Assembly: GCA_964017065.1 (NCBI GenBank)
Contig: OZ024786.1
Span: forward strand, 4,441,781 to 4,505,780
Direction: 5' to 3'
Source of the DNA: Haliclona indistincta
Taxonomy: Eukaryota > Porifera > Demospongiae > Haplosclerida > Chalinidae
Length of the DNA stretch: 64,000 nt
Shown: positions 8,578-63,766 of the stretch, in pieces
Numbering within the stretch: position 1 is the stretch's first letter
Layout: every line of letters begins with the position of its first letter
Translations under genes and position numbers: made by a program
The notes under the pieces: generated by a model
What the model was told of the DNA's origin: nothing
Database searches by the model: none
The model's input: the letters and a program-made list of their open reading frames with translations, nothing else

Positions 8578-9272
8578 CTCCTTACTGAGCAGCACAGCTC
8601 ACATAACCACAGAAAGATTATACTGAGCAGAGTTCTCACTCTGACTATCGTGCTCGCTGCACTGTACAGCCTCCTAGCTGTTACGCATGACTATCGCCAA
8701 CGCAATATACAGCGTGTATAATATCATTCCAAAACCACATGTGGTCTGGAGACTCAACTCGAAGAAAAATGTGTTATTTTGGGGTCCTAAAAAGGGATTG
8801 AGCTAAAAGTACCGATATGTCCTGCTCTAGACAGCTTACACTACTTCAATTTTATAATGGTATGTGATATGTTATGTATTAAACACAAAACTACACAAGC
8901 TTACTAATAAGTCCTTGTTCACTTTACTAGTATTACTAACTAGCTAACTACCAATGGGCGTGAACTGGTCCCAAATACATGGTTTCAGCTGCAGCACTAT
9001 TCTGCTAGAGCTGGTTTGAGCACACGTGACTTCAGGTAGCTGATGGAGGTCCTGATAGACTTGCCAATGCTGCTGCTGTGGGCTGGTTTAACCAGAATGG
9101 TTGTCACGATGGGTTTAGTGAAGGCAGGGAACAGATATAGGCGACGTTATCAGGTAATTTTTTCATTTTCAGCTCTGAGTGCTGGGTAGATAGATAACCG
9201 GCAGCAGACTGATGGTGACAGACATGATAGAAGCTGCGAAAAGATGTAACAGAGCTTTATTGACGGCCTTCG
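8578..9272. other. Decayed sequence downstream of Harbinger fragment
   Basis: No frame matches the rest of the transposase; nothing else recognised. Confidence 0.35.
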
Positions 9273-9841
9273 TTATTCTGGCATTGAGTAATGCATTGAG
9301 TAATCAGCTTGATAATAACAATCATGGATGAACTGTGTATCACCTGGAAACCAAGCACGCATGCAGGCATACTGCTCGAATAAGTCTTCTTCGGTGCGGA
9401 GAGTATGTTCGTTTGCTTGTTCGCCAATGATGGCGATTGTAATCACAGTTGTGATTAGTGTTGGTACAACGATTGCAATGATCACCGTTGCCTATTTCAA
9501 CTCTTTTCCATAGTGGAGCAAAATGGGTATGCTGATTGCTATCATGAAGGTAGCCAAGACCATCTACGTAGCCTCAAGTTGACTTTCAATCTATCAATGA
9601 GATTACCCTGATAGAGCAGGTAAGACGGCTGCTGTAACCAGTAGAATAGTGCGGAACCAATTGCTTTGAAAGTTTCTGTAATCATAAAGTTGGCAAGAAG
9701 GAACAGGGTGCTTTTGTTCATTTTCTTGATAGCTAGTATTTTTGCAGCACAGTAGGGGATGATGATAGCTGCATAACATGACTGATGGCACAACAAACGT
9801 TTGAAATACTTGACAATATCTTTGCTGAGATCGTCCATGGA
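9273..9841 (-). pseudogene. Possible multi-pass membrane protein gene on the minus strand, interrupted
   Basis: From ATG near 9838 the minus strand reads MDDLSKDIVKYFKRLLC followed by hydrophobic segments CYAAIIIPYCAAKILAI and STLFLLANFMITETFKAIGS; in another frame come VLATFMIAISIPILLHYG, a TAG, then VIIAIVVPTLITTVITIAII and a soluble acidic end (EQANEHTLRTEEDLFEQYAC) to the stop at 9273. Up to four membrane segments are predicted by eye. The frame change near 9560 and the internal stop suggest a pseudogene or unresolved splicing. No family recognised. Confidence 0.3.
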
Positions 9842-10289
9842 ACACTGTTTGCTGCTGATGGAAGTGTCAGTATGTTGTCATGGAGCTCACTTTTATAGGC
9901 ACTCACCAATTGCCTAAAATTGTTCTTTGTGGTGTTTCTGGTGTTATACTGCCCACGCTAGCTCACACTCACATGTACTACTAATCTTTGAAGTCGTCAC
10001 GATATTTTGTAGCCACCGTTGTAAGAGAATTGAGGACCTAGAAAACAGAAGTATAATACTAAAAGTAATTGGGAAAATTGATCATCTGGAATTACCACCC
10101 TAGGTACGTGGAAGTCCAAGAATTATTGCGATGACACGTTTTGATGCGTGAACAAAACGACATTCTTCGAAATCGCATGACATTTTTTCGCACGGACATC
10201 AAAACATGGCTGTTTATTGTCTTGTACTGCCCAAATAATTAAGTTTCACAATTTAAATCTTCGAATGGACCTATAAGATTCTCCATCAA
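9842..10289. other. Non-coding stretch
   Basis: Nothing recognised. Confidence 0.3.
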
Positions 10290-25257: not shown

Positions 25258-26640
25258 GATGAGGTGTAGGTCAATTGGCAAGAAAGGGCTAGAGCAATAC
25301 ATTCCAAAAAAGTACTTACGAATAGCCAGCGCAAATCCTCCAGTAAGAGTGCATTTCACAAGAAATACTCAGGTACATATACATTATCAATACAAAATTG
25401 ACATGCATTGCAAATGTATTATCATCATATTTTATTCAGATGATGATATGATTTTCTTCAAGTGGTTTCAAGAAAGCATTTAGTCACTAAGAATTACATA
25501 TGGAAAAATTGAGCGAAAGAAATGGACAGAACCATCATTCATCATCTAAATGATGCCCAGTCTGTGTCACTAGGACTTAAACGTATTTTCATTGTTCCTG
25601 TCACACAGATCCTGGATCATAAAAGAACGGATGATATCATGAGCGGCTATTGTTATGGTGATGCAGTTTTAAAGAGTATCCACTATTTTCAAAAGATCCA
25701 AAAGCACTTCAAATTCTGGTATCTTACGATGACGTGGAAGTTGTTAACTCACTGGGCTAATACACAATGAGGCATAAACTAGGTGAGCAAAACGTACAAA
25801 CCAGATCAACGATAATGGTGCACCTACATTCTACTACACACTCGCCAACATATCACATGAGCATCGCTCATCGTTGACAATGATTCAGCTGTTAGCAATA
25901 ATGAAGTCAGTAGATGTTGCTGAATATGGGATGGATGTGATTCTGAAATCGTTCGTATAGGATTTGGCCAAATTAGAATGTATGAGCATTTTTAATAATG
26001 TAACTGAACATACTAAATGTATTCTAATAAGATGAGGATGTCAATTTTGACATCAAGGGAAGAAGATACAACTTTAGAGGGTCACTTGCGTTAGTATCGG
26101 CAGACCATTTAGCTAGTCAAGCAAATGGAGGCTACAAAGCACTGAACAGTGCCTTAAGGAAGTGTCGCCATTGCATGGCAGTGCGTCTACCATGTCAACC
26201 AAGGTATAAATTTTGTTTATCATTATTCATAATTAAAATACTTTTAGCAACAGAATTTGAGCCAAGAACTAGAGAAACACATGCAAGTCACAGCATGTTA
26301 CTGAACACATCCAGCTCACAAGATTTTGCCATCACATATGGTTTAACACACGACTCGATCCTGAACTCATCTCGTTTCTTCAATGTGACAAACGGTCTCT
26401 CGCCAGACTGCATGCATGACATCTTAGAGGGCTGCTTGCAGTATGAAGTGAATGAGTTACTACGATCTCTGGTAGAGCGGAAGTTCATCAAGCTAGAGGC
26501 TCTCAAAAAAAGGATAGAACTCCTCCCATATTCTCAGCCACTAAACCAAGCCCTAATATATCGCTATCCACTTCTGATCACTATCAGAAGCAAAATGGTA
26601 TCAATAATGAAATGCGCGCGATTTCACTACTGATAACTAG
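25258..26640 (+). pseudogene. MHDILEG-family transposon-type gene, copy 1
   Basis: Coding pieces in order: IGKKGLEQYIPKKYLRIASA (25272), DDDMIFFKWFQESI (25438), VPVTQILDHKRTDDIMSGYC (25595), DPKALQILVSYDDVEVVNSL (25690), then after a GT donor FYYTLANISHEHRSSLTMIQ (25830), MKSVDVAEYGMDVILKSF, then NFRGSLALVSADHLASQANG and RKCRHCMAVRLPCQP with a GTATAA donor (26205), then FFNVTNGLSPDCMHDILEGC (26368-26430). This order is that of an uncharacterised protein multicopy in sponges, cnidarians and fish, probably a transposase-related gene. In-frame stops (for example within ...NSLG*YTM) and a deletion relative to copy 2 near 26073 show it is decayed. Confidence 0.6.
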
Positions 26641-29660: not shown

Positions 29661-30740
29661 TAAATAAGGTTAACCGTCTGCCGCGCCCCTAAGGCACGAG
29701 CCCGGCCGAGGCAGCCCCGCCCTGGAGCCGGGCTCGCATGCGCACTCTCTTACACGTACGCGTGCTTGTACCTCAGTCTGCAGCTGTCTCAAACCAAGTT
29801 AGTTGGGCGAGAAGCTGTGTTGTTCGGAAGCTAGAAGCTGTTTTTGTATCTGTCTGCATCGCTATGTCTTCCTCGGGATCGTCTTTGCCCACTGTCACCC
29901 CGGCGTCGACGTCGGTTCCCTCGTCCTCGGCTACCTCGGTAGTAACTGTCTCGGGCACGGACTTCCAGTCAGCGATCCAGTCGGCGGTTCAGGCAGAGCT
30001 GGCCAAGGCTCTAGCCGCCTCTCTACCCGGGCCATCCGGTGTGTCCGCCGGTAAGCCTTTGTTGTATTTTGTCTCTCTTTCTTGCCATCCCTCGTCTCGC
30101 ACGCATACCGTGCGCTCTCCAAGCCCGGGCCCCTTCTCTTCCTCTTCTTCCTCCTCCTCCTCCTCTCTCTCTCTCTCTCTCTCTCTCTTCTTTTTCCCGG
30201 CGTCAAGTGTCCACGGCACTCAAAGCCCGCTCTGGCGGAGTCTGCCATTCATGGTACTTCTCACACTCTCTCCCCTCCTCTCTCGCTGCAGGCTCCGGCG
30301 CCCCGGCTCCGGGGTCAATCTCAGCGTCTGTCCCGGCTCCCGCCTCTCTGGCGTCTATCCCCATATTCTCACTGGGAGCTCCCCTGACCTCTTCCACCTC
30401 GGTCGCCAGCTCTACTCATCAGGCGATCCCGTCACTATCGTCACTCCACTCCTGGTCAAGAGGTTGTGGTGAAGCCACCGGCACAGTCACCTCTAGACGA
30501 TGACCAACCACCACCGCCTCGTACTAGGCCTCGCCGCCCTCCTAAAAAAACAATAGAGGTAGCAGAGGTAGAGGGAAAGGCCGAGGTGGTGGCACCAGAG
30601 GAGGTCACAGTGGCACCTGCATTAGTGGCCCTAAAACTGAAGTAGAGGGGAGCGACGTAAAAGGAGGACATCGTCGCCGCAACTGCCGTTCGGCGTGGTA
30701 TAGACATCACTTGGGCCAGGGAGGCTGGGCAATTGTGAGT
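29661..30740 (+). mobile_element. 5' fragment of a DIRS-order element: gag exon 1, CT-rich intron, exon 2
   Basis: The start TTTAAATAAGGTTAACC (29658-29675) resembles 61753-61770 (TTTAAATATGGTTAACC), the front of the element at the right edge. From ATG 29863 the frame reads MSSSGSSLPTVTPASTSVPS, then VSGTDFQSAIQSAVQAELAK and ALAASLPG, matching MVQATVQSELARILGSLG in the other element. A GTAAGC donor (30051) opens an intron containing a CT tract (30150-30190); the acceptor CTGCAG (30291) leads to GSGAPAPGSISASVPAPA. The second exon soon goes out of frame, and 30550-30740 has RGSRGRGKGRGGGTRGG. No gag core, RT or recombinase. Truncated copy. Confidence 0.5.
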
Positions 30741-30914: not shown

Positions 30915-32289
30915 AAAGATCCAAAAGCAATTCAAATTGTGATATTCTACGATGAAATGGAAGTTAACCCACTGGGCTCATATACAATGAAACATGAACT
31001 AGGTGAGTAAAACATACAAACCAAGTTCAATTATAATAGTGCAGATACATTCTACTACACACTCGCCAACATATCACACGAGCATCGCTCATCGTTGACA
31101 ATGATTCAGCTGTTAGCAATAGTGAAGTCAGTAGATGTTGCTGAATATGGGATGGATATGATTCTGAAATCGTTCATAGAGGATTTGGCCAATTAGAATA
31201 TATGAGCATTTTTAATAGTGTAACTGAACATACTAAATGTATTCTAATAAGATGAGCGTGTCAATGTTGACATTAAAGGGAAGAAGATCATGTACAAAAA
31301 GGATTTTCGTCTTCAACTCGTTTTTCTACCCCAAGCTGATACAACTTTAGAGGGTCGCTTGCGTTAGTATCGGCAGACAATTTGGCTAGTCAAGCAATTG
31401 GAGGCTACAAAGCACTGAACAGTGCTTTAAGGAAGTGCCGCCATTGCATGGCAGTGCGTCTACCATGTCAACCAAGGTATAAATTTTGTTTATCATTATT
31501 CATAATAAAATAGTTTTTAGCAACAGAATTTGAGCCAAGAACTAGAAACACAAGCAAGTGATAGCATGTTACTGAACACATCCAGCTCACAAGATGTTGC
31601 CATCACATATGGTTTAACACACAACTCGATCCCGAACTCGTCTCGTTTCTTCAATGTGACAAACGGTCTCTCGCCAGACTGCATGCATGACATCTTAGAG
31701 GGCTGCTTGCAGTATGAAGTGAAGGAGTTACTACGATCTCTGGTAGAGCGGAAGTTCATCAAGCCAGAGGCTCTCAAAAAAAATCGGCACCATACCAAGC
31801 CCTAATCTATCGCTATCCACTTCTGATCACTATCAGAAGCAAAATGGTATCAATAATCAAATGCGCGCGATTTCACTACTGATATCTAGTCAGTGGAAAA
31901 ACTGCAAGCTGTGTTGGTTGTAGACCAAATAGCAAAATTAAAAAGACAAGTGGATATCTGCTATGTCGACTGGAAAATCAACAAAGGAGACTTTAAGGAG
32001 CTTAAGTTATTGTTATTTGGAATTCTTTGCCTAGTGTTATTGTACATTCATCTTCCTTGTCATACTTTAAGACTCAAATCATAAACTATCTTACTTCTGT
32101 TTAATTGTTTCTTTGTTTTATCGCTATTATTATTGTTTTATTTTTGTTTTTTTTCTTTAAGGTGTCCCTTAATATTAGCTCTAGCTATTGGGATTACCTC
32201 ACTGTACCTTTCAGTGTAAATTAAAAAAAAACACTTGATACTGGAGAAGTATTTCATTATGGTGCCGATCGGCTGAAGAACCCGATTTT
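30915..32289 (+). pseudogene. MHDILEG-family gene, copy 2 (left part of duplicated segment)
   Basis: Second copy of the 25.7-27.2 kb segment. Pieces include DPKAIQIVIFYDEMEV, FYYTLANISHEHRSSLTMIQ, MKSVDVAEYGMDMILKSFIE, RKCRHCMAVRLPCQP and FFNVTNGLSPDCMHDILEGC (31650-31705). It keeps about 50 bases after 31290 and about 80 bases near 31950 that copy 1 lacks, so it is nearer to the ancestral form. The segment is interrupted at 32289 by the Ngaro-like element and resumes at 38386. Confidence 0.65.
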
Positions 32290-32417
32290 AATGCCATTTA
32301 TACGTAGAATAAATGGAGTTAATGACCCGGGCACTCCCCCATTGTATTGGGAGGCGTCCTGTAGGCGTGGCTAGTGTGTGCGCGTGCTGAGCTCCTTTCA
32401 CCCTCGTCGTGTCTCCC
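32290..32417 (+). repeat. Split direct repeat A1
   Basis: Starts AATGCCATTTATACGTAG and ends CTCGTCGTGTCTCCC. Identical by eye to A2 (37674-37801). Confidence 0.92.
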
Positions 32418-34656
32418 TTTGTTATCCATCTCAATCGTCGTCAATACTAGTTCGATGGCTGGAGGCAGGCGTGGGAGAGCCCGCGGGTCTCGGGCAATGG
32501 TGACACCAAGATCATCGGCCGCGCCGATGTGTGTATGTGTGTGTCTGTGTATGTGTGTGTGTCTAGTTTGTGGCGGTATAATTATTATGTCTCAGCATAG
32601 TGCGTGTATGTGTTAGTATTGCGTGACCAATTTGTCAGTCTCGTCACGGTGTTGTCCTTTGTTATTTACACGGTGTTGTCTTTTTTGTTATTGTCATGCA
32701 TGCCCGGTGCGTGTTAACCGATTAATTGTAAACGTTGCTCCACCCACGTCACGCGATGGCTGATTTTGAATTGTGACAGCTATCTCGGTACTGCGCTTTG
32801 TCCCTGCTCTAGAGGCTTCAGCGCGGAAGCTAGAGGTACGAAAATGTTTTCTCAACCTGTGCTATACCCAGGGCTACTGTTATTTGCCCATCAAAACTTC
32901 AGTTGGACCGTCAAAGCTATCTGCTACCATTGTACACGTACGCGAGGAAATGTTCTTCGCTTCTTCCCTACACCACGCAGCGTAAGCTGTACCAGGAACC
33001 TTCTGTGTTGTTCAAAACTAGACCTTGGCCATTGTAGAAGACTCTGTGAGCGTGATAACGACATCATCAACGGCTTTCAACTTGTACCGGGCGTGTCTAC
33101 TCCACCTACTTACCGCCATTTTTCAAATCATGTTGCTGTAACTTGGAGAGCAGTCTGTGCCGCTTCTACTCGCCTCTGCGCGTTTGCTACAACTAAGTGA
33201 GTGTTGTCTATCATACCAGTGTACTCCAGAGCTCTGCTAATAAACTTCTAAGCTTTGTATGACACGTCAAAGCTACTCGCCAGCAAGTGATGGCGGACGA
33301 GTGAGTTGTCATGCTTCTCCTTCGTGTTGCTCTGTGTACACGGCAACTACAGCCTTTTAGGATGTTTAGAACTTGACCATGGTCATTGTGGGAGCCTTTG
33401 TGTGTGTGTTACTAAGCAGAACTGCTGTTGACAACCTTGTTGGAGTTCATTTCTGCCTCAACTATAGAACAGAACTAATTTCCAGGAGAATACAGCTTTG
33501 TTGCTGCATACTTTGTATCACTATTTTACACTTCCAACAGCTTATTAAGTGTTGTATAACATCTGATTTGCCTTGAGCTATCTACTAGCAAGCTATTGAG
33601 TTATTTGTGACAACCAGCGTACATGAGCGACGTGTGTATCGTCAGGATGCTCAAGCTTGCTATGGACGATCGTATTCTTTAACAAGTGCTGAGAACTACC
33701 ATGCTATCTGCTGATATTCGCTGTCTGCTCAAGATCAAAATACTTCTTCAAGCTTTCCATTACTTTATGTTGATTGCTGTGATTGATAATATTATTCAAA
33801 CACACACCACCCTCTTCTTCCTGGGTAGCAAACTGTCTGTGAGGCCATGTGTAGCACTCATCTCAACAGCAAAGCTGTGTAGACACTGTACTATTGCAGC
33901 AAGAAGCAGTCAGTTATCACAGCTTGGTGGGCGTTTGTTTACACAGACTAAAGCGTGTTAGAAACCACAATAAACAAGTTAGAATGCTATAGCAACTATG
34001 TTTCATCGTTGCCAAGGAGTATTGGCTGCAACAAAGCAAGTTGGCTGGCGCTAGCTGTAACTGTTTCGAGGTAACGAAGACGCGCATATATATATGTGCG
34101 TCGCGTATACGGGTGGATTTCATTGCGCATAAATATATGCGCGTCGCGGTATGTAGGGTTAAGGGTACCGACTCAGTATCCTCGGTGTACTTTGGGAGGG
34201 ATGTTTCTCTGGCATCTATGTATTTGTGGTAATCGGACTGTGCTGATCCGAGGGGGACCAACGCTACGCCGTGGGTATTAGCGCGGAGTATTGTGTGTTC
34301 TGTTTGCGACTTGCTGTCGCCTGTCCATCCTGCTGGTTGGTGGTGCTGACTGCTCTCTTGTGTGTTGCATGAAGTGATTGTACATCCAGGTTAGGCCATG
34401 GGGAGTTAGAGCGATGTGCATGCATGTGGCGTTTGAAACGGTAGAGGTACCCACAGTATCTGTGTCGCACATAGATCGGTGTCATTTATATGGTGTTCTT
34501 ATACATCCATCAGAGAGTACTGCATCTTTGCGCGCCCGCGTCTCGAGCAATACTTCGTAGTGTTTGCTATCTGGCCCCAATTGTTACCCCACTGCCTAGG
34601 GTGGTACTTGAATGTGCCCTTCGACAAGTTTCACCTGGCTGTTATCCTTGTCATAG
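32418..34656 (+). other. 5' leader/intron of the Ngaro-like element
   Basis: About 2.2 kb between A1 and gag. ATG at 32456 opens MAGGRRGRARGSRAMVTPRS followed by a GT-rich run, which could be a short gag exon 1 spliced to the acceptor TTGTCATAG at 34656 (inference from the two-exon gag in related copies). An open frame 32766-33200 (144 codons) is unrecognised. Two related stretches (GACCTTGGCCATTGTAGAAG near 33027 and GACCATGGTCATTGTGGGAG near 33375) hint at an internal duplication. 34080-34150 holds two palindromic GCGCATA...TATGCGC motifs, each followed by GTCGCG. Confidence 0.5.
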
Positions 34657-35672
34657 GTCCCAGCTCATTGGGGTCCATGCCTCCTCCAGGATCAATTGGC
34701 TCAGTTCACCTCTCTACCACCCCTCCTGGATCAGTTTCCGCAGGCGTTACCATGCCTGGTGCTCCAGTCACCTCACAGCAGCTATTCGGGAACCTCCTGG
34801 GCCCCGACTGGTTACTCCCAGCTATAACGACGTCAGGCGCCACTAGCTTGGCAATGTCGGTGCGGCCGGTACCGGCGCGGCTGGTGCAGCAGATCCGGGC
34901 AGGGAGATTCATAGAGATGAGAGATATCCTGCGTGACAACGCTGCAGGCAGGTCCCATTTCGAAGACCTACATGGTGGATTTGGGGTTCACTTACTACCA
35001 GTGTCATCAAGGCCGAGTGTCCGCGAGGTCCCTTCGCTGCCCTCCTGGGTTTGCTGCTTCCTCACATATCTGGCTGTGTTCACTACAGATCAAGCGACAT
35101 GCAAGAGGGCTACATACGGTCTGTTGGTTATCAGGGAAGCGATGCAACATGGCGGACAGGGCTGGCTTGACTATGATCGCTTGTTCAGGCAACAGGCGGC
35201 CATTAATCCCAGCATGCAGTGGAATGCTCTCCACCCAGAGCTGCAGGCAGCGACCATCCTTAGTCAACACACATCTGGAGGTACCTTTTGTACGGTTTGC
35301 CAGGAACACGACCACAACGCATCCCAGTGTGCGATGGCCCAACTCCAACCATCAACTATCCGTACTTCCACTACCATGTCACGACAGCCTGGGCGTAGCA
35401 TGGGCAGGATATGCACCTCCTGGAACGAAGGTGCGCGTATCTATCTGGGAAGCTGTTCCTTCTGTCATGTTTGCTCCAAGTGTTATCAGCAGTCCCATCG
35501 TGCTAAGGATTGCCACGCCCCAGCCAGATCCAGACCAAGCGGCCCCAGCGGAGCCAGAGTGTCGCAGAGCTCATCTTCACCACTCCCCTCTACACCTGGC
35601 AAAAGCACCTACGTATGTACCTACCACATTTATCGCTCGGAGCGTCTCAAATCTCAGCTTGTTAACCACTGA
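34657..35672 (+). CDS. gag: Gag-like protein of the Ngaro-like element
   Basis: The open frame runs through 34657-35672 after an AG acceptor (an upstream ATG at 34479 is in the same frame). N-terminal part is Pro/Ser/Thr-rich; then VQQIRAGRFIEMRDILRDN, RSHFEDLHGGFGVHLLPVSS, a helical core ending in REAMQHGGQGWLDYDRLFRQ, and two CX2CX4HX4C zinc knuckles: CTVCQEHDHNASQC (about 35289) and CSKCYQQSHRAKDC (about 35475). Between them ICTSWNEGAR keeps the outline of a CCCH finger that is intact in the related element at 63.6 kb, but its second Cys is replaced by Arg. A Ser/Pro-rich tail ends at TGA 35670-35672. It would package element RNA. It appears intact. Confidence 0.8.
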
Positions 35673-36027
35673 GCTACTCAGTATCTATCACTTGTGAACC
35701 ACCTTATACTGTTATTCTCCGTTTTATATTATTCAATGGGCGGCTCAATAGTATCTCTTATTCATTATCTGTACCACATGATTTTGTCCTTTTATCACTA
35801 TGTGCTGTGTGGGAAAGGTGTATTTATCATCAATGTGTCAAGAAGCGTACGAACGTTAATGTCAACTGGGGCATGTGTCCGGGTCACCCGTTATGAGGGC
35901 ACAGTCAGTCCGAGCCTACCGGTGTGGTGTCTAGTATGGGATACCTGGGGAACCGTGAGGAGTTGCAGTGGCCTGTTGTAGCAAGCGCACCTGCTTGGTT
36001 GTGTGTATACCGTTTCTGTATCTGTAG

Positions 36028-37001
36028 ATCCATCAGTTGGACCACTCTCCCAGTTGACACGGTACTTGTTGGGAGTCGGGACCAGTGGATACGTGCGGAT
36101 GGCCAACCTTCGCTGCCTCTCCCACCCTCCACACCCACCTCCACCCAATCATCTCAGCTGGTCAACCTGTGCCTCTCCAATTCGTACTCCCATGTTAGCT
36201 GCCTACCTTTGCCGCCACCCAGATAGGGAATTTGTTTCTTTTATCCGGCACGGGCTTGTCCAGGGATTCCATGTAGGCTATAATGTTATGTCATCGGGGG
36301 CGAGGCTGAGGTCAGGATGTCGTAATCATCCATCGTCATTGGCCAATGCTCAGGTTGTCCGAGACTGTATTGTAGAGGAGATATTGGCAGGCAGGATGGT
36401 AGGTCCTCTGTGCCTAGCACCACACAGATCAATCCACTGCTGTCCAATCGGTCTTGTTCCTAAAGGACGAGGATCGGGTCAATGGCGAATGATTGTCGAC
36501 CTGTCATACCCGGAGGGTCACAGTGTGAACGACGGCATCCTCTCATCGTTGTGCACAGTAGATTATTCATCGGTGGACAGGGCTCTTCAGTTTATCACTC
36601 GTCTTGGAAGAGATACCTTGCTCCTTAAAATCGACCTGAAGAGTGCCTACCGGATAGTCCCACTGCACCCCCAGGATCAATACCTATTTGGTGTCACTGG
36701 GGACAACTGGGTATATGTTGATCAAGCATTGCCCTTCGGTCTGCGCTCTGCGCCTGTGATTTTCACGGCCGTGGCAGATGCTATTGGATGGGCGCTTCTG
36801 GAAGTGGGATTACACTTTCACATTCATTATCTGGATGAGTTTCTGTTTTTATCCCCCCAGCTGGAGGACTCGCTGATTCAAACTCTTGGCCGCTGGCACT
36901 CGGTGGCATTCCAGCGATACATTCGGACGCCAGCCCACCAGTTAGCAGCCTCCACTACACGGCTCCTTCCCCCGGACCTCACCTCAGGAATACCTACGTG
37001 A
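36028..37001 (+). CDS. Reverse transcriptase N-terminal half fused in frame to tyrosine recombinase C-terminus
   Basis: After a TCTGTAG acceptor the frame runs to TGA 36999-37001. RT motifs of the DIRS type: CCPIGLVPKGRGSGQWRMIV, DLSYPEGHSVNDGI, LLLKIDLKSAYRIVPLHPQD (first catalytic Asp), VDQALPFGLRSAPVIFTAVA and HIHYLDEFLFLSP, where the canonical YLDD box reads YLDE. Immediately after, LEDSLIQTLGRWHSVAFQRY and IRTP match the last block of a tyrosine recombinase, with the nucleophile Tyr in QRYIRT. Thus RT thumb, RNase H and the Arg/His part of the recombinase are deleted, and the remaining ends are joined in frame near 36865. The product cannot be a full RT or recombinase. A CCCCCCAG at the joint could also be an acceptor, but no donor pair is evident. 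Confidence 0.8.
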
Positions 37002-37288
37002 AGTCACTATATCCAAGGCACAATCGGTGACCTATCTTCCCTTGGTCGACATTGACTATAGTATAATTATTGACTGTAGCGGACCCCTTCGTGTATTTAG
37101 CATTTGTTTTGTTTGTGTTTTTTTTTTGTATTGCATGTATAGTATATCCTGTTAGCCTTTGTACGTCCCATTCTTCTCCATTCTCTTGTATTTTCAGTCA
37201 TTTGCTCTGAGTATAAAGGAATATTTATTGCTAATGGTATTCATGAGTGTCATTGTGAAATGCGTCATCCTGAGGGTTGGGGAGTGTC
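37002..37288. other. Spacer between pol remnant and B1
   Basis: Short AT-rich stretch with a T run near 37115-37125; no gene. Confidence 0.4.
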
Positions 37289-37674
37289 TGGGCATTGGTG
37301 TCGAGGGTCGACATACACTCCCCCATATATGTCTGCCTTCTGGGGTTTGGGGCTTCCGTGACCGGTGCCCCTGCCCGTGAAGGTATGTTGTTGTGTCTCG
37401 AAAGTGTGTGGTGTACCGCCTGTGTAAGGTGGTCATGTGCACGTGTTTGGCGTCCCACCTACACAAGGTGGTTGTGTGTTTGGCGTCCCACCTACACAAG
37501 GTGGTTGTGTGTTTGGCGTCCCACCTACACAAGGTGGTTGTGTGTTTGGCGTATATGTTCTATGTGTATAGTGTCAGCACTAGGGGGGGAGTGTCCCTTG
37601 TGGCTTTACCAACCACACCCCTTCCACAAGAGTGGTTACGGGGTCACGGTTGATGGAGTCACGGGCTTCATTAA
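37289..37674 (+). repeat. Split direct repeat B1
   Basis: Starts TGGGCATTGGTGTCGAGG, ends GGCTTCATTAA at the junction with A2. Contains three exact 33-base units (GGCGTCCCACCTACACAAGG + TGGTTGTGTGTTT), each with the palindrome CCACCTACACAAGGTGG, plus one divergent unit ahead of them. Confidence 0.92.
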
Positions 37675-37801
37675 ATGCCATTTATACGTAGAATAAATGG
37701 AGTTAATGACCCGGGCACTCCCCCATTGTATTGGGAGGCGTCCTGTAGGCGTGGCTAGTGTGTGCGCGTGCTGAGCTCCTTTCACCCTCGTCGTGTCTCC
37801 C
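37674..37801 (+). repeat. Split direct repeat A2
   Basis: Second copy of A1, abutting B1 with a shared A. The B1-A2 junction is the sequence expected at the joint of the circular intermediate. Confidence 0.92.
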
Positions 37802-37999
37802 ACCCATCCCATCCCCTAAGGTGAGTTATTTATGTTACTACTCTTTTTATTTACTTTTCCTTTTAGATGTGTGTCCTTTACTTTGTTACATGTCCGTTAC
37901 TTGTGTGTGTGTCTATATGTTTATATGTCTGTTCGTCATCGTTGTCATGTGTCCGTAATTTGTTTGTTCACTCTCCACTCTATGAGTGTGAGCGCCACT
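37802..37999 (+). other. Unique spacer between A2 and B2
   Basis: 198 bases, T/G-rich, no gene. In split-repeat elements this is the region present once between A2 and B2. Confidence 0.6.
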
Positions 38000-38385
38000 T
38001 GGGCATTGGTGTCGAGGGTCGACATACACTCCCCCATATATGTCTGCCTTCTGGGGTTTGGGGCTTCCGTGACCGGTGCCCCTGCCCGTGAAGGTATGTT
38101 GCTGTGTCTCGAAAGTGTGTGGCGTACCGCCTGTGTAAGGTGGTCATGTGCACGTGTTTGGCGTCCCACCTACACAAGGTGGTTGTGTGTTTGGCGTCCC
38201 ACCTACACAAGGTGGTTGTGTGTTTGGCGTCCCACCTACACAAGGTGGTTGTGTGTTTGGCGTATATGTTCTATGTGTATAGTGTCAGCACTAGGGGGGG
38301 AGTGTCCCTTGTGGCTTTACCAACCACACCCCTTCCACAAGAGTGGTTACGGGGTCACGGTCGATGGAGTCACGGGCTTCATTAA
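38000..38385 (+). repeat. Split direct repeat B2 (right end of element)
   Basis: 386 bases, same length as B1, with a few C/T differences (for example GTTGTGTC/GCTGTGTC and CGGTTGATGG/CGGTCGATGG). Ends CTTCATTAA at 38385, where duplicated host sequence resumes with TGATTACAAAC. Confidence 0.92.
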
Positions 38386-38680
38386 TGATTACAAACAAAC
38401 AACTTCAAAATCTCACAAAGTGCCGATTCTGTACATCCTAAAAATTTATACATCCAGGCATGCATCAAATGTTTTTATTTTACTGTCCTATCGGGTATCG
38501 GTACAGGATACTATACTAATATTCCTAAGTATAATCAACATTGTGATGACAACAATAAAAACTTTACTACTGCCTTAGCTCTACAAATGCAAAGATGCAC
38601 AGACACCTCTTATTAGACACTAAATGCTATAGCCAACTCTCAATGAGACTATGCATGCATGCTTGCTATACACAGGGCTC
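38386..38680. repeat. Right part of duplicated segment copy 2
   Basis: Matches 26972-27263 from TGATTACAAACAAACAACTT to CACAGGGCTCA with few differences; beyond that the copies diverge completely. Confidence 0.9.
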
Positions 38681-41600
38681 AAGCTTAGAATAATGAGTAA
38701 TATTTGAAAATAATTATGTCGCACTATCGAAAATTCGTTCCTCAATTTTTCATTATTGTCAGCTGTCTTCGTTTGTGGATTACCATGTTTTTATAATCAC
38801 TTCTGATTTGACTTCTACATCTCTGTGTATGTGCTAATACACAATCTCTCTGAATCTGTCATTATTGGCTGCTGCAACGCTAGAGGTAGCTCAAAAAATT
38901 TCATACAGTTGTTAACTACTAGTTAATAAGTATAAGTAATGGGTTTTTCTTCCTTGGAAAACGAACCCATCAAGTATCTTGGCACAACAGCCCCAACTCA
39001 ACAAACAACAGCTAACAAAATCAGCCAAGATCACAGAGACCAAAAGAGATCACCAGCAAAGGCTAGATCATTCCAAGAGCCTCATTAACAAGGTCAAACC
39101 TTTAATGATGACCTAGACACTACATCGGCCCACAGGGCTGCCTCAAAACTACCAGACTCCTCTATGACATTGAAATTTTCGTGACTGAACAAGAAACAGT
39201 TGTAGTACAAGCACAAAAACACACACATGAGAATAAAATACTACAGGACAACACTGGCAAGTGAGACAAATCGAAACGTGACTTGTGATCACAGACTAGA
39301 TGCTGCCAATACTGCAGCTACTGTATACACTAACTAGTAGTTATTAACACCTGAAGTACTAGGAATTAGTTCTAACAGCATAGGAGATTTCAGAAAGCTT
39401 ACTCGGCAAGTTTGCCCAGTGCTATAGTGGAGGATTGATGTCAGATGATATCAGCATCCTATAGCTGCTTCTGCCAAGCCATCATCTACAGCTATCACCA
39501 CCAAAGATTTGATTGAGAAATTAAACACATTAACATTATTTGCATCTTCGCATAACAGGGCTTACTTTACAATTAACAGTGTGAGTTCGTAAGCTCCCTT
39601 TGGTTATTAGCGCTGTTACTAGTGTTGGGTAGCTTTCTTGCTCGCTCCTGAGAAGCTGTTGAAATTCTTTTTTTCAACTTTCCTGTTACACACCCCTCAC
39701 AGAATGAGAGTGTAAAACCTTAGGCAGTTGGATCCCAAAGGCTAGCTTCTAGTGTGTCATTATTTTGATGCACTAGCATTTCCCAGTCTGAGATGCCAAG
39801 TATTGATCGTGCATACTCTACGACTATTTCTTATTGGTAAATCCTCAGAACCATGTTGCTCATGTTTCTTTTCTAATTTGCAGTAGCCTAACCTCTCTTT
39901 GTTTTTCAGTCTCTGCACCACGTTGCTCATGCTCCTTCTCTCTCATTTGCTGTAACATAACCTCTCTCTGTTTCTCATTCACAGCTGTTGCTGCTGCCCT
40001 ACTTTAAACAAAAGATGAATCGCCAACCTAGTAGTCTTTTTTCCTGACTTGAACACCTTGGAGTTAATTGGGGACAGAGGAGGCACCAAATTGGGAAAAC
40101 TTTCTTCTACTTAAAAAAATGCCAGACTAGTCTTCGCTCCAAACTGCACTAGGAGTACCGCTGTCTTCCAAGAGGGTCTGATAGATGATTACTTACAGAC
40201 ATTCAGAGAGCTTTACCCTGACTTCTCAACAACACGTAAACAGCATTACATGGAACACATTCGTCAATGGATACTAAAGTATGGAAATTGAACACTAAAT
40301 ATTAGCAAACTATAACAGATTAATGGACAATTTACAGAAGTGAACCACTAACTAGATTCTGGTGCATGAGCCAGGAGATATTACAATAGCTGACTCTAGT
40401 GGTCTCCTACCAATCTTTGGAGAGACTGAATGGATCTTGTTCATCCACAATGAGTGGCACTTTGTCTGCCAACTATTCAACACAAACACATGATACAACA
40501 CAAACTATCATGCATATGAAGTTTCGTATCATTCCTCAAGCGCACCTATCATTATTTGTCAGCTGTCTTCGTTAGTGGAATATCATGTAATATATCGTAA
40601 TACATGCAATTCTTTTGTACCTTTAAAAATATCAAATTCCAGAGCACAATCAATTTTAATTCATTGTATCTGACAACTAGGACAAACAAACATACAGCTC
40701 AGTGTCACAAGCTCATATGTACACAGTTCGGTTGCAATTGATGAACAGCACGTTTGGGTGGAGCTGCGCTGCACAAAGTTCAATATTCCACCCACAATAT
40801 TCTACAAGCCACCATCTTATGGCAGCAAGAGATCATGTGACTTTGAGAATCCAGCTCCCAAAAGAAGATCAGCACAATTATGATAAGCAGAGTGAGCCTG
40901 AACTGCTCTCAGAGTGAGTCTGAACTGCTAGTAATGCTTCTCTGATTATAATTATGTATATAGGTGGTACGTAAAGAATAATATTGATACCAAAGCAAGT
41001 GAGAAAATAAGTGCACTAGATGCACTTTTGGACTGAAATGATGAAGATTTCTCCAATATATCAGACATCAAAATATGAAGCGTTTTACATTCTGGAATAC
41101 TTTGCTCCCAAATCAGTGGAATTTACTTACCATGGGGTACTTCCAGGTCTCGCAATAATAAATATAATTTTAAACCACATTAAAATCCTAATAGCTAAGA
41201 TAGCGAATAGCTAAGACGGCCAACATCACCAAAACTCAAGTCAAGGTACAAAGTGCATACACCATATCATGTGCAACATCATCCGATTCTCACTTTGTTA
41301 GGTCTGGCAAAAACATTCGTGTTCGGTATCGGCGTAAAAAAGGACAGCCTGGATATCAACCACTACAGCAGGTGTATTCGCTATCGAACACGAATGTGAG
41401 AATGGGAACAAAGAAAGGCTAGTTGGTAGCATTGCATTCAACAGGTGAATCTACAATGTGCCGTACTACATGAAAATTTGTGTTTTCTAGTTCGTGCGTG
41501 TCAAATTAATTTGCTTATGCTCTTGTGCTGCATGTTCATTATTATATAACCATTATTTGGTTATATGTTTGTATAGCGTGTATTTTCTTTATCTTGGTAG

Positions 41601-61750: not shown

Positions 61751-61959
61751 TTAGAGAGCTTTAAATATGGTTAACCTCACTGATCCCTATGCCCCCCGGG
61801 TGGTGGGCGACGCCCCGTCACGTGGGCGGGTCCCCGCACGTGTGCTGAACAACACGCATGCGCTACCTGAGCACATGTACTGTTCACACATCCCGCGCGA
61901 GGCAAGCTGTGTGAGTCTGCTGTTCTGTTCTGTGAATCCGTGCGAATCATCTCCAAGTT

Positions 61960-62175
61960 ATGTCTACAGCCTCCAGTATGCCGCCTGCGACGGACACAGG
62001 ACCTACTATTACAACGTCTACTGCCACCTCGCCGCCGGTACCAGTGTCATCTGGTTCTGTGCCCCTCACCACAGACGCTGTCACGGGAATGGTTCAGGCC
62101 ACTGTGCAGTCGGAGTTGGCGCGTATCTTGGGCTCACTGGGTTCTTCAAGCGGTACTCCGCCGAGTTCCTCAGGT
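61960..62175 (+). CDS. gag: Gag exon 1 of the right-edge DIRS-order element
   Basis: ATG 61960 starts MSTASSMPPATDTGPTITTS; then AVTGMVQATVQSELARILGS, LGSSSGTPPSSS, and a GTATGA donor at 62174. The 29.86-kb copy has the same arrangement. The competing frame 61767-62273 shares the region but has no family support. Confidence 0.6.
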
Positions 62176-62846
62176 ATGAGTGCAGTACTGTTAATGTGTG
62201 CATGCGCTCCCTCGCACCGGAGCTGCCCCCTACGTGTCTTAGTTCGCCAGACAGCGCTCACAGCAAGGTCTGAGAATTACTCCACAGACACGCCGGGTAC
62301 CCCAAAGGCCGGGCGCTTGCATGAATCTGACCTCCCTCCCTCTCCCTCTTCTCCTCCTCCTCTCCCCCTTGTTTTTTTTCTTCTTTCGTGCTTCTCCCAT
62401 CTCTCTCTTCTCATCCTCTCATTTATTTTCTCACTTCCCCCTTTTCTTTCGCGCTTCCGCTATCTCTCTCTTTTCTCTGTCTCTCTCTCTTCTCATCCTC
62501 TCATTTCTTTTCTCAGTTCCCCCTTTTCTTTCGCGCTTCCACTATCTCTCTCTTTTCTCTGTCTCTCTCTCTTCTCATCCTCTCATTTTCTTTCCTTTCT
62601 CACTCTCCTCGGCTAACCTTCTCTCAAGGTCTAGCAACGGCTGCCACGTCCAGCCTAGTCAGTTTGCACGATAAGCCCACTCAGTACTAAAGCCCACCTA
62701 TCACCGGTGGCTCGAGAAATCTGCTCCTCCCTGTGCGAGGAAGCGCAGACATGCCCTCCTCAGAGTTAGGATCGGCAATCGATCCATTTTCCTACATCAA
62801 TCTTACATGGTTCCCATGGTTACATGCTACCTGTTCCCTCTGCAGG
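62174..62846 (+). other. Pyrimidine-rich intron of gag
   Basis: About 670 bases with a strong C/T bias on the plus strand from 62320 to 62625, containing two nearly identical units (TTTCGCGCTTCC + (A/G)CTATCTCTCTC and CTCTTCTCATCCTCTCATTT). Acceptor CCCTCTGCAG ends at 62846. Confidence 0.6.
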
Positions 62847-63766
62847 TACAACCATTGCCGCCTCCACGGCTAGCAGTTTTCTCTCTATGCCTTCCTCCTG
62901 TGCTCTGGGGAGCATTCCCACATGGCCCCTGGGCAGCAGCACTCCCCCAATCTCACTGTCTGGAACCACCCCCACGCCCAGTATCCCGACACTGCAAACG
63001 CTGCTGGCGTCTGTTACTGGTAACTCTATCGGAGCCATTCCAAAGCCCAAGCCCTTGGCTTATTCACCAGTCCTACCGCCGATCCCAGCAAAGGCAGTGG
63101 AAAAGATCCGTTCTGGGGCTTACCTTGACCTGAAGGAGCTGCTGCCGGACAACGTCACACTCGTCGAGCGCATCCAAGGCCTCGGCAACGCAGTGGTTGT
63201 TCATTCCCCCCAGAAAACTGTGAGGCTGCGCTCCATCTCAGACCCACTCACCTGGGTTTTCTACTTCCTATCATTCATGGTAGCGTCAAGCGACTGCCAG
63301 ACAACACGAGACATGGCAGCTTACGCTCAAATTGTGATCCACCAATCTCGCAAGCATTCGGGGGGCGGGTGGCTTGCATATGATCAGCTGTCCATGGAAC
63401 GACCTAGCGCCATCTATCATGGCCGCAACCGTCCTCCGTGCTGGGGAGTCGTGCTCACTGTGCCATCTCCCGGACCACACAACGGACCAGTATACAGAGA
63501 GCAACCAAAAAGCTAAGCCTGCTCCCCCAGGACCCAGCAAGTCTCAACGCTATAAGCCATACCCATCGGCTAGCCCCAAAGCATCGGAGGAAGTCTGTCG
63601 CCGCTTTAACAAAGGCACCTGCCCGTTCTCTGCGGCCTCTTGCCCCTATACACATGCTTGCTCATCGTGTAATAGCATTGGCCATGCCCTACCACGGTGC
63701 CCAGGGAAGCGGGAAGACAAAGGAAGGCTACCTCCTGCCTTGATCCCGGCTACATCCAAGCCGTAA
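62847..63766 (+). CDS. gag: Gag exon 2 with CCCH finger and zinc knuckles, frameshifted once
   Basis: Reads GTTIAASTASSFLSMPSSCA, then VEKIRSGAYLDLKELLPDN, SDPLTWVFYFLSFMVASSDC and GGGWLAYDQL (63394), and continues in the next frame with WNDLAPSIMAATVLRAGESC. There follow CSLCHLPDHTTDQY (a knuckle with the last Cys replaced by Tyr), CRRFNKGTCPFSAASCPYTH (CX7CX6CX3H finger) and CSSCNSIGHALPRC (CX2CX4HX4C knuckle), stop TAA 63764-63766. The single frame change at about 63397 inactivates this copy unless it is an assembly error. Confidence 0.7.

What the first reader, a model, noticed from the sequence alone, without database searches (positions are those of the whole stretch)
32290..38385. Ngaro-like retrotransposon with fully preserved split direct repeats (A1...B1-A2-B2)
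A 128-bp repeat (A) occurs at 32290 and 37674 and a 386-bp repeat (B) at 37289 and 38000, in the order A1 - genes - B1A2B2. A1/A2 look identical, B1/B2 almost so. This is the diagnostic architecture of tyrosine-recombinase retrotransposons of the Ngaro/VIPER kind, and the identity implies recent activity in this genome.
Basis: partly seen in the sequence, partly recalled or inferred. Interest (0 to 1): 0.8.

Follow-up and report, generated by a model that had tools for sequence, protein, structure and literature searches.

The report
Deleted Ngaro-like retrotransposon with complete ends
This is a jumping element of a known but little-studied kind, in a probable sponge genome: its unusual repeated ends are complete, but most of the enzymes it needs to move have been deleted, and the ends share short conserved hairpin-like blocks with other families in the same genome.

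Summary
In detail: A1 (32290-32417), B1 (37289-37673), A2 (37674-37801) and B2 (38000-38385) form A1-internal-B1-A2-X-B2; A1/A2 match 128/128, B1/B2 383/386. A Ngaro-like YR retrotransposon fits: split direct repeats downstream of YR, RT before YR, no methyltransferase found, no evident target duplication; no labelled Ngaro reference was available for a tree. 'Fully preserved' is wrong for the coding part: a ~1.7-kb deletion fuses the reverse transcriptase to the last 46 residues of the recombinase, and a ~1.45-kb TTAA-flanked repeat sits in the 5' region. A second copy with the same deletion and insert has unrelated flanks, so the defective form moved, presumably helped in trans. A complete 3' end is the exception: 2 of 10 two-ended copies found in two families have A2-X-B2; 8 end at a single B. 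Four families share conserved blocks: a GGGGAGTGT...ACACTCCCC hairpin at B1, a different stem-loop before B2, and an inverted repeat flanking the B|A junction. I infer that these set RNA ends and mark the recombination junction; untested. New member of a known kind, with a possible new cis-element.

The parts
32290..32417 (+). A1, left split direct repeat
   Evidence: 128/128 identical to A2; 7 of 9 left ends printed (this one included) start at the same ATGCC, L028 and L037 depart
32418..32717 (+). 5' region after A1, with the start of a short ORF (MAGGRRGRARG...)
   Evidence: aligned, in pieces, in L025-L027; ORF compared by eye with L026
32714..34162 (.). nested mid-repetitive insertion flanked by TTAA (TTAA at 32714-32717 and 34159-34162)
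   Evidence: 40 places scored of 361 candidates, 38 of them outside the window copy and L025; absent from L026/L027, which carry a single TTAA at the empty site
34437..35672 (+). gag-like open frame with two cysteine/histidine knuckle motifs (motif read by eye)
   Evidence: relatives in L026/L027; no Pfam match
35982..36860 (+). reverse transcriptase, truncated; YLDE in place of YLDD
   Evidence: RVT_1 E=6.2e-11; 272/292 identical to L027
36861..37001 (+). last 46 residues of the tyrosine recombinase with the presumed catalytic Tyr (RYIRTP), fused in frame to the RT by a ~1.7-kb deletion
   Evidence: 44/46 identical to the YR end of L026; 1693 and 1695 bp lie between these points in L026 and L027 (coordinates)
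37279..37287 (+). pre-B1 box GGGGAGTGT
   Evidence: 4 of 4 families; 8 of 9 F1/F2 copies read, L028 has a change
37289..37673 (+). B1 repeat
   Evidence: 383/386 identical to B2
37315..37323 (+). B-early box ACACTCCCC, complementary to the pre-B1 box
37443..37552 (+). 33-bp tandem units in B1 (3.3 copies); the same array in B2 at 38154-38263
   Evidence: period-33 arrays also in F2 and F3, none in F4
37586..37614 (+). B-late box GGGGAGTGTCCCTTGTGG..TTACCAACC (also in B2, 38297-38325)
   Evidence: 2 matches in the window, 0 in 100 shuffles, up to 3 mismatches
37674..37801 (+). A2 repeat; the B1|A2 junction reads ATTAA|ATGCC
37715..37722 (+). A box GCACTCCC, inverted relative to the B-late box across the junction
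37802..37999 (+). X, spacer between A2 and B2; apart from its last ~60 bp matched only here
   Evidence: 40 of 45 candidates scored
37973..37996 (+). pre-B2 box with its own stem-loop (CTCCACTCTATGAGTGTGAGCGCC)
   Evidence: conserved at the same place in 4 families, F4 with changes in the stem
38000..38385 (+). B2 repeat, right end of the element
   Evidence: 9 of 9 right ends printed (this one included) read CATTAA and then differ, except that L039-L041 share flanks with each other

Best explanation
A young, non-autonomous Ngaro-like tyrosine-recombinase retrotransposon that kept complete split direct repeats but lost RNase H and most of the recombinase. Shown: architecture, deletion, nested insert, a second copy of the same derivative elsewhere, conserved blocks. 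Inferred: RNA starts near the right border of A1 and ends near the left border of B2. The internal B1|A2 junction is the template from which the missing ends are restored, giving a circle whose B|A junction the recombinase inserts at a target without duplicating it. Enzymes of fuller copies did this in trans for the window copy and L025. The different contexts of B1 and B2 would let transcription pass B1 and end at B2.
For: Repeats. Deletion and RT-YR fusion. Same derivative at C1:8.0 Mb; 1.5 kb of flank on either side gives no BLAST hit to the window's flanks; 29 substitutions in 5378 aligned sites. Fuller relatives with RT and YR frames. RT across a 100/100 branch from two elements of the same genome with a methyltransferase-like domain. 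No evident target duplication in the 9 copies whose two flanks I read. Independent family with the same plan. B1/B2 border within 2 nt of the same TGGGCAT in 4 of 4 families, next to a conserved stem-loop; no AATAAA/ATTAAA in X in 4 of 4.
Against: No transcript, circle or new insertion was seen. No labelled Ngaro sequence was available for the tree. The copies with a single B (8 of 10) are not predicted by the simple cycle. F1 left flanks mostly share T(T/A)A but F2 left flanks do not, so no common target core supports the junction model. X has no known role. Poly(A)-like hexamers do exist nearby: AATAAA in A of F1, ATTAAA in A of F2, AATAAA 47 nt before B1 in F3, and ATTAAA at the extreme right end of F3 and F4, so ordinary polyadenylation is not excluded and in F3 could even act at B1.
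Confidence: 0.82

Rival explanations
1. The element proper is A-internal-B, and A2-X-B2 is a separate short element lying next to it, so the split repeats are an accident of two neighbouring insertions.
For: 8 of 10 two-ended copies found in families F1 and F2 have only A1-internal-B.
Against: L032 (F2), L038 (F3) and L043 (F4) have B1-A2-X-B2 with their own sequences; the pre-B2 box is conserved in place; no free A-X-B of F1 or F2 was found (searches that give lower bounds).
Confidence: 0.06
2. Copies with one B arise after insertion by ordinary homologous recombination between B1 and B2, as solo LTRs do.
For: B1 and B2 are near-identical direct repeats 711 bp apart; Ngaro copies that lost all or part of their repeats are reported in Xenopus (PMC9210276, passages) and isolated AB repeats in Cafeteria (PMC8547959, passages).
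Against: It hits 8 of 10 copies including young ones (L025; L034, about 99.3-99.6% identical to L032 over its internal parts). Diagnostic sites in B do not separate this from loss at insertion.
Confidence: 0.55
3. Copies with one B are made at insertion, when the recombinase resolves a circle with two identical B|A junctions into A-internal-B and A-X-B circles.
For: The two junctions of the proposed circle would be identical, and young copies already lack A2-X-B2.
Against: It also predicts free A-X-B insertions; none was found for F1 or F2.
Confidence: 0.3
4. The element belongs to the DIRS/PAT group.
For: PAT elements also have split direct repeats (PMC4157794, passages).
Against: No methyltransferase domain in the F1 and F2 frames scanned; L046 and L048, elements of this genome with a methyltransferase-like domain, are about 27% identical in RT/RH and lie on the other side of a 100/100 branch.
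Confidence: 0.05

Closest known systems
Ngaro-like retrotransposons (zebrafish, sea urchin, Xenopus, Cafeteria)
   Same: A1-[ORFs]-B1A2B2; gag, RT/RH, YR order; no methyltransferase; Xenopus DIRS-53_XT has A 236 bp and B 152 bp (PMC9210276, PMC8547959, PMC4157794; passages)
   Different: X spacer of about 160-320 bp between A2 and B2 in four families; 33-bp tandem units in B of three families; L027 has RT, RH region and most of YR in one frame; no SGNH hydrolase hit in the frames scanned
VIPER-like retrotransposons and SIRE (trypanosomatids)
   Same: A1...B1-A2-B2; SIRE corresponds to A2 and B2 with an exclusive internal region of ~30 bp, so a spacer between A2 and B2 has a precedent (PMC6681497, passages)
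   Different: the VIPER table lists gag, YR, RT/RH; here RT precedes YR
PAT and DIRS1-like retrotransposons
   Same: YR; split direct repeats (PAT); complementary internal regions and a short circular junction (DIRS1; PMC3266345, passages)
   Different: they carry a methyltransferase; DIRS1 has inverted terminal repeats

Membership tests
Ngaro-like | split direct repeats in the order A1 ... B1-A2-B2 | tested here: met
   also L032
Ngaro-like | internal repeats downstream of YR | tested here: met
   YR remnant 36861-37001 precedes B1; in L026 the YR frame precedes its single B
Ngaro-like | RT/RH and tyrosine recombinase encoded | tested here: met
   RT: RVT_1 in window, L026, L027, L032. YR: no Pfam match in the F1 frames; L032 YR matches Phage_integrase at 23.9 bits, under the cut-off of 27.1, and P0063, 42% identical to L027 over 90%, matches over it. 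RH rests on position and a sub-threshold RVT_3 match in L032. The window copy keeps only part of RT and 46 residues of YR
Ngaro-like | no methyltransferase domain | tested here: met
   none in F1 and F2 frames scanned; none of the 16 genome hits to PF05869 lies in the copies described here
Ngaro-like | no target-site duplication | tested here: met
   9 copies with both flanks read (window, L025-L028, L032-L035): none evident by eye; a 1-3 bp overlap cannot be excluded in F1
Ngaro-like | RT groups with named Ngaro sequences | not testable with these tools
   no labelled Ngaro, PAT or VIPER sequences were at hand; only separation from two methyltransferase-like elements of this genome was tested
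VIPER-like | gene order gag, YR, RT/RH | tested here: not met
   RT precedes YR
DIRS/PAT | methyltransferase domain | tested here: not met
LTR retrotransposon | same repeat at both ends | tested here: not met
   left ends carry A, right ends carry B in the 9 two-ended copies read

The most novel reading that the evidence does not exclude
The split direct repeats hide a set of alternating inverted boxes: GGGGAGTGT before B1, ACACTCCCC early in B, GGGGAGTGTCCC late in B, and CACTCCC in A. At B1 the first two close a hairpin. At B2 the same B sequence follows a different stem-loop. The late-B and A boxes bracket the B|A junction. This would be a switch that ends the RNA at B2 but not at the identical B1 (perhaps without a poly(A) signal), and a recombinase-binding inverted repeat, giving direct-repeat elements a counterpart of the DIRS1 internal complementary regions.
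Probability: 0.3. Interest if true: 0.65.

Novelty: new member of a known kind. Interest (0 to 1): 0.42.

Why it matters
How split direct repeats let an RNA rebuild both ends of the element is a model; in the passages I read I saw no direct test of it. Four families in one genome with the same repeat borders and the same short blocks point to where the RNA should start and stop and where the recombinase should bind, so the model can be tested by sequencing RNA ends and circles. The near-identical defective pair suggests that incomplete copies can be moved by others, and the 8 of 10 single-B copies may explain why some published consensus sequences of such elements lack the 3' repeats.

Tried and rejected
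Considered and rejected: LTR element (no two-ended copy read has the same repeat at both ends); chance neighbourhood of two elements (L032, L038 and L043 have the same plan); assembly duplication; known RNA family or ribozyme in the repeats (Rfam gave no match over a gathering score); DIRS/PAT and VIPER (membership table). The 33-bp units were considered as a coding array; I read them as structured filler of B, but F4 lacks them. Covariation of the small B stem is weak evidence: 2 of 7 pairs changed on both sides, 93.9% of cells paired; of 500 shuffles 101 reached the paired percentage, 35 the both-sides count, 366 the number of pair types and 24 the covariation score; slid versions paired 4-53%. 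Hairpin z-scores were -2.24, -3.12, -1.59 and -4.57, so F3 is not significant. At first I looked for poly(A) signals only in X and the start of B2; a wider check found them in A of F1 and F2, before B1 in F3 and at the extreme right end of F3 and F4. The first F4 comparison gave A1/A2 130/135; four of the five differences lie in the last 12 bases, at the border, leaving 122/123.

Copies left out of the 2-of-10 count because they lack one end, were read only in part, or belong to other families: L029/L030, L031, L036, L037, L039-L042, L044 (fragments), L038 (F3; A1 not found in the stretch fetched), L043 (F4; complete, single copy), the three further loci, and loci that have both a B1-start and an X/B2 hit but were not read (C8:7479117, C1:11064823, C4:12628608).
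Full report
Observation. Self-comparison of 31000-40000 returns two direct repeat families of 25 nt or more and no inverted pair: A (32287/37671) and B (37289/38000). A1/A2 are identical over 128 bases and B1/B2 over 383 of 386. The order is A1 - internal - B1 - A2 - X - B2. B1 abuts A2 directly (ATTAA|ATGCC), but 198 bp, X, separate A2 from B2.

Host. The window lies in a 144-Mb genome without a name. The named relatives with RT and YR in one protein are from Ephydatia muelleri and Amphimedon queenslandica (42% identity each), so a sponge is likely; this is inference.

The coding part is broken. The frame 35982-37001 gives RVT_1 (E=6.2e-11). Its first 292 residues match the RT of L027 (272/292) and its last 46 match the end of the recombinase of L026 (44/46). 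In L026 and L027, 1693 and 1695 bp lie between these two points (coordinates): the rest of RT, the RNase H region and most of YR. The RT motif reads YLDE here and YLDD in L026, L027 and P0001. A ~1.45-kb repeat sits between TTAA copies in the 5' region; 40 places were scored of 361 candidates, 38 of them outside the window copy and L025; L026 and L027 show the site without it. The gag-like frame 34437-35672 is open and has two cysteine/histidine knuckle motifs read by eye; Pfam gives no match.

The derivative moved. L025 (C1:8.0 Mb) carries the same nested insert and the same deletion. Its flanks look unrelated to the window's over 200 bp, and 1.5 kb on either side gives no BLAST hit. The two copies differ at 29 of 5378 aligned sites, gaps (18 columns) aside; B1/B2 plus A1/A2 of the window copy differ at 3 of 514, so both insertions look about equally old. 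Since the derivative lacks most of its enzymes, help in trans by fuller copies is the likely reading; no helper was tested.

Copies with one B. Five copies of this family (F1) have both an A left end and a B right end: the window, L025, L026, L027, L028. Only the window has A2-X-B2 (1.0-2.4 kb was read beyond B in the others). In a second family (F2), L032 has all repeats (A 117/117; B 404/406 plus one 33-bp unit of difference), while L033-L035 and a copy at C1:16957974-16963558 have a single B (the last was judged from hit tables, not read, and has an extra piece of the B array inside). That is 2 of 10 complete. X of F1 (but for its last ~60 bp) and X of F2 (but for its last part, next to B2) were each matched only once (searches that give lower bounds). 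Loss by recombination between B1 and B2 is the simplest reading; resolution at insertion is the alternative. Published parallels: loss of all or part of the repeats in Xenopus (PMC9210276), isolated AB repeats in Cafeteria (PMC8547959), and Repbase consensus entries of VIPER and TATE without 3' repeats (PMC6681497); I saw passages only.

Insertion sites. In F1, 7 of 9 left flanks printed end in T(T/A)A before ATGCC (L028 and L037 depart) and 9 of 9 right ends read CATTAA; in F2 the 4 left flanks end in C or A before ATACATG and the 4 right ends read GTTAA followed by C, T, T or G. No target duplication is evident in the 9 copies with both flanks read.

Classification. L027 holds RT, the RH region and most of YR in one 844-aa frame; RT/RH frames of F2 and F4 match it at 60-66% and their YR frames at 56-63%. 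YR and RH assignments rest partly on these likenesses: the F1 YR parts have no Pfam match, the L032 YR frame matches Phage_integrase just under the cut-off, and P0063, a 42% relative, over it. No methyltransferase was found in the F1 and F2 frames scanned. PF05869 hits 16 other places of the genome, two of them over the cut-off. Of these I used L046 (over the cut-off with its neighbours) and L048 (27.3 bits, cut-off 28.1): about 27% identical to L027 in RT/RH and across a 100/100 branch in a tree of 26 rows (19 rows were my choice from the 120 listed of 1394 hits; L046 was flagged for its letter make-up). This fits Ngaro-like by structure; without labelled Ngaro sequences the tree cannot name the group.

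Conserved blocks. In the four families whose 3' ends I could read (F1 window, F2 L032, F3 L038, F4 L043), the same blocks recur in the same places: GGGGAGTGT just before B1 (8 of 9 F1/F2 copies read; L028 has a change); TGGGCAT at the start of B; a small stem; ACACTCCCC; GGGGAGTGTCCCT with TTACCAACC late in B; TTAAAT at the B|A junction; CACTCCC in A; and, before B2 only, a CTCCACTC..GTGTGAGC(G/T)CC block with its own stem-loop (F4 departs in the stem). Inside boxes that I drew after seeing the alignment, 185 of 288 ungapped columns are identical in all four, against 112 of 648 outside (sums over). Genome-wide, GGGGAGTGT-N(0-24)-GGGCATNGGTGNCG has 15 matches and none for the reversed pattern; late-B - TTAAAT - CACTCCC has 7 and none reversed: the four families and three loci alike among themselves. 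RNA folding of the B1 hairpin gives z-scores of -2.24, -3.12, -1.59 and -4.57. Covariation is suggestive at most.

Mechanism, inferred. In the published model as I recall it, RNA runs from A1 to B2 and the internal B1|A2 copy restores the missing ends. If so, the border at which A1 and A2 stop being alike should lie near the RNA start, and the border at which B1 and B2 begin to be alike near the RNA end. The A border falls at or just before a pyrimidine tract in the three families where A1 and A2 were both read (F1, F2, F4), and the B border within 2 nt of TGGGCAT in 4 of 4, directly after the pre-B2 stem-loop. X holds no AATAAA or ATTAAA in 4 of 4. Against a special 3' end: such hexamers do occur in A of F1 and F2, 47 nt before B1 in F3, and at the extreme right end of F3 and F4. 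I still think it likelier than not, on the borders alone, that the B2 context marks the 3' end; that the B1 hairpin hides a signal is a guess. The late-B and A boxes form an imperfect inverted repeat around the junction and could serve the recombinase. None of this was tested.

Literature. Searches for Ngaro with split direct repeats (8 papers), Ngaro with sponge (14), YR retrotransposon terms with circular/hairpin (29, 15 listed), split direct repeats with circular (3) and DIRS with Porifera (6) listed no paper whose title, or the start of whose abstract, describes such boxes or sponge Ngaro elements. I read passages of five papers, no whole paper, and the library lacks most subscription journals.

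Verdict. A real, young, defective Ngaro-like element with rare complete ends: a new member of a known kind. The conserved blocks are the part worth following.

Noticed in passing
61936-63516: Two open frames resembling the gag-like protein of this element (by eye), probably another YR element cut by the window end.
   Followed up: no
29693-30645: Open frames, the first resembling the N-terminal gag part of the 61936 frame (by eye), a possible remnant upstream of the element.
   Followed up: no
26031-26633 and 31521-31805: Repeated transposase-like fragments (SPDCMHDILEG motif; CACTA-like from recall).
   Followed up: no
32714-34162: TTAA-flanked ~1.45-kb mid-repetitive sequence with at least 38 further places in the genome (40 scored of 361 candidates), perhaps a piggyBac-type non-autonomous element (from recall).
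   Followed up: partly
L039, L040, L041: B fragments without internal sequence, followed by near-identical flanks, suggesting that a B end was carried along with another repeat.
   Followed up: no
L038:1-2485 and L043:1-3000, 9270-9901: ~172-bp tandem arrays beside two Ngaro-like elements.
   Followed up: no
window B1/B2, L032 and L038 B repeats: Tandem units of about 33 bp with partly different sequence but predicted to form hairpins in three families.
   Followed up: partly
window versus L025: Substitutions are uneven: 2 in 1445 sites of the nested insert, 21 in 2696 of the internal part.
   Followed up: no
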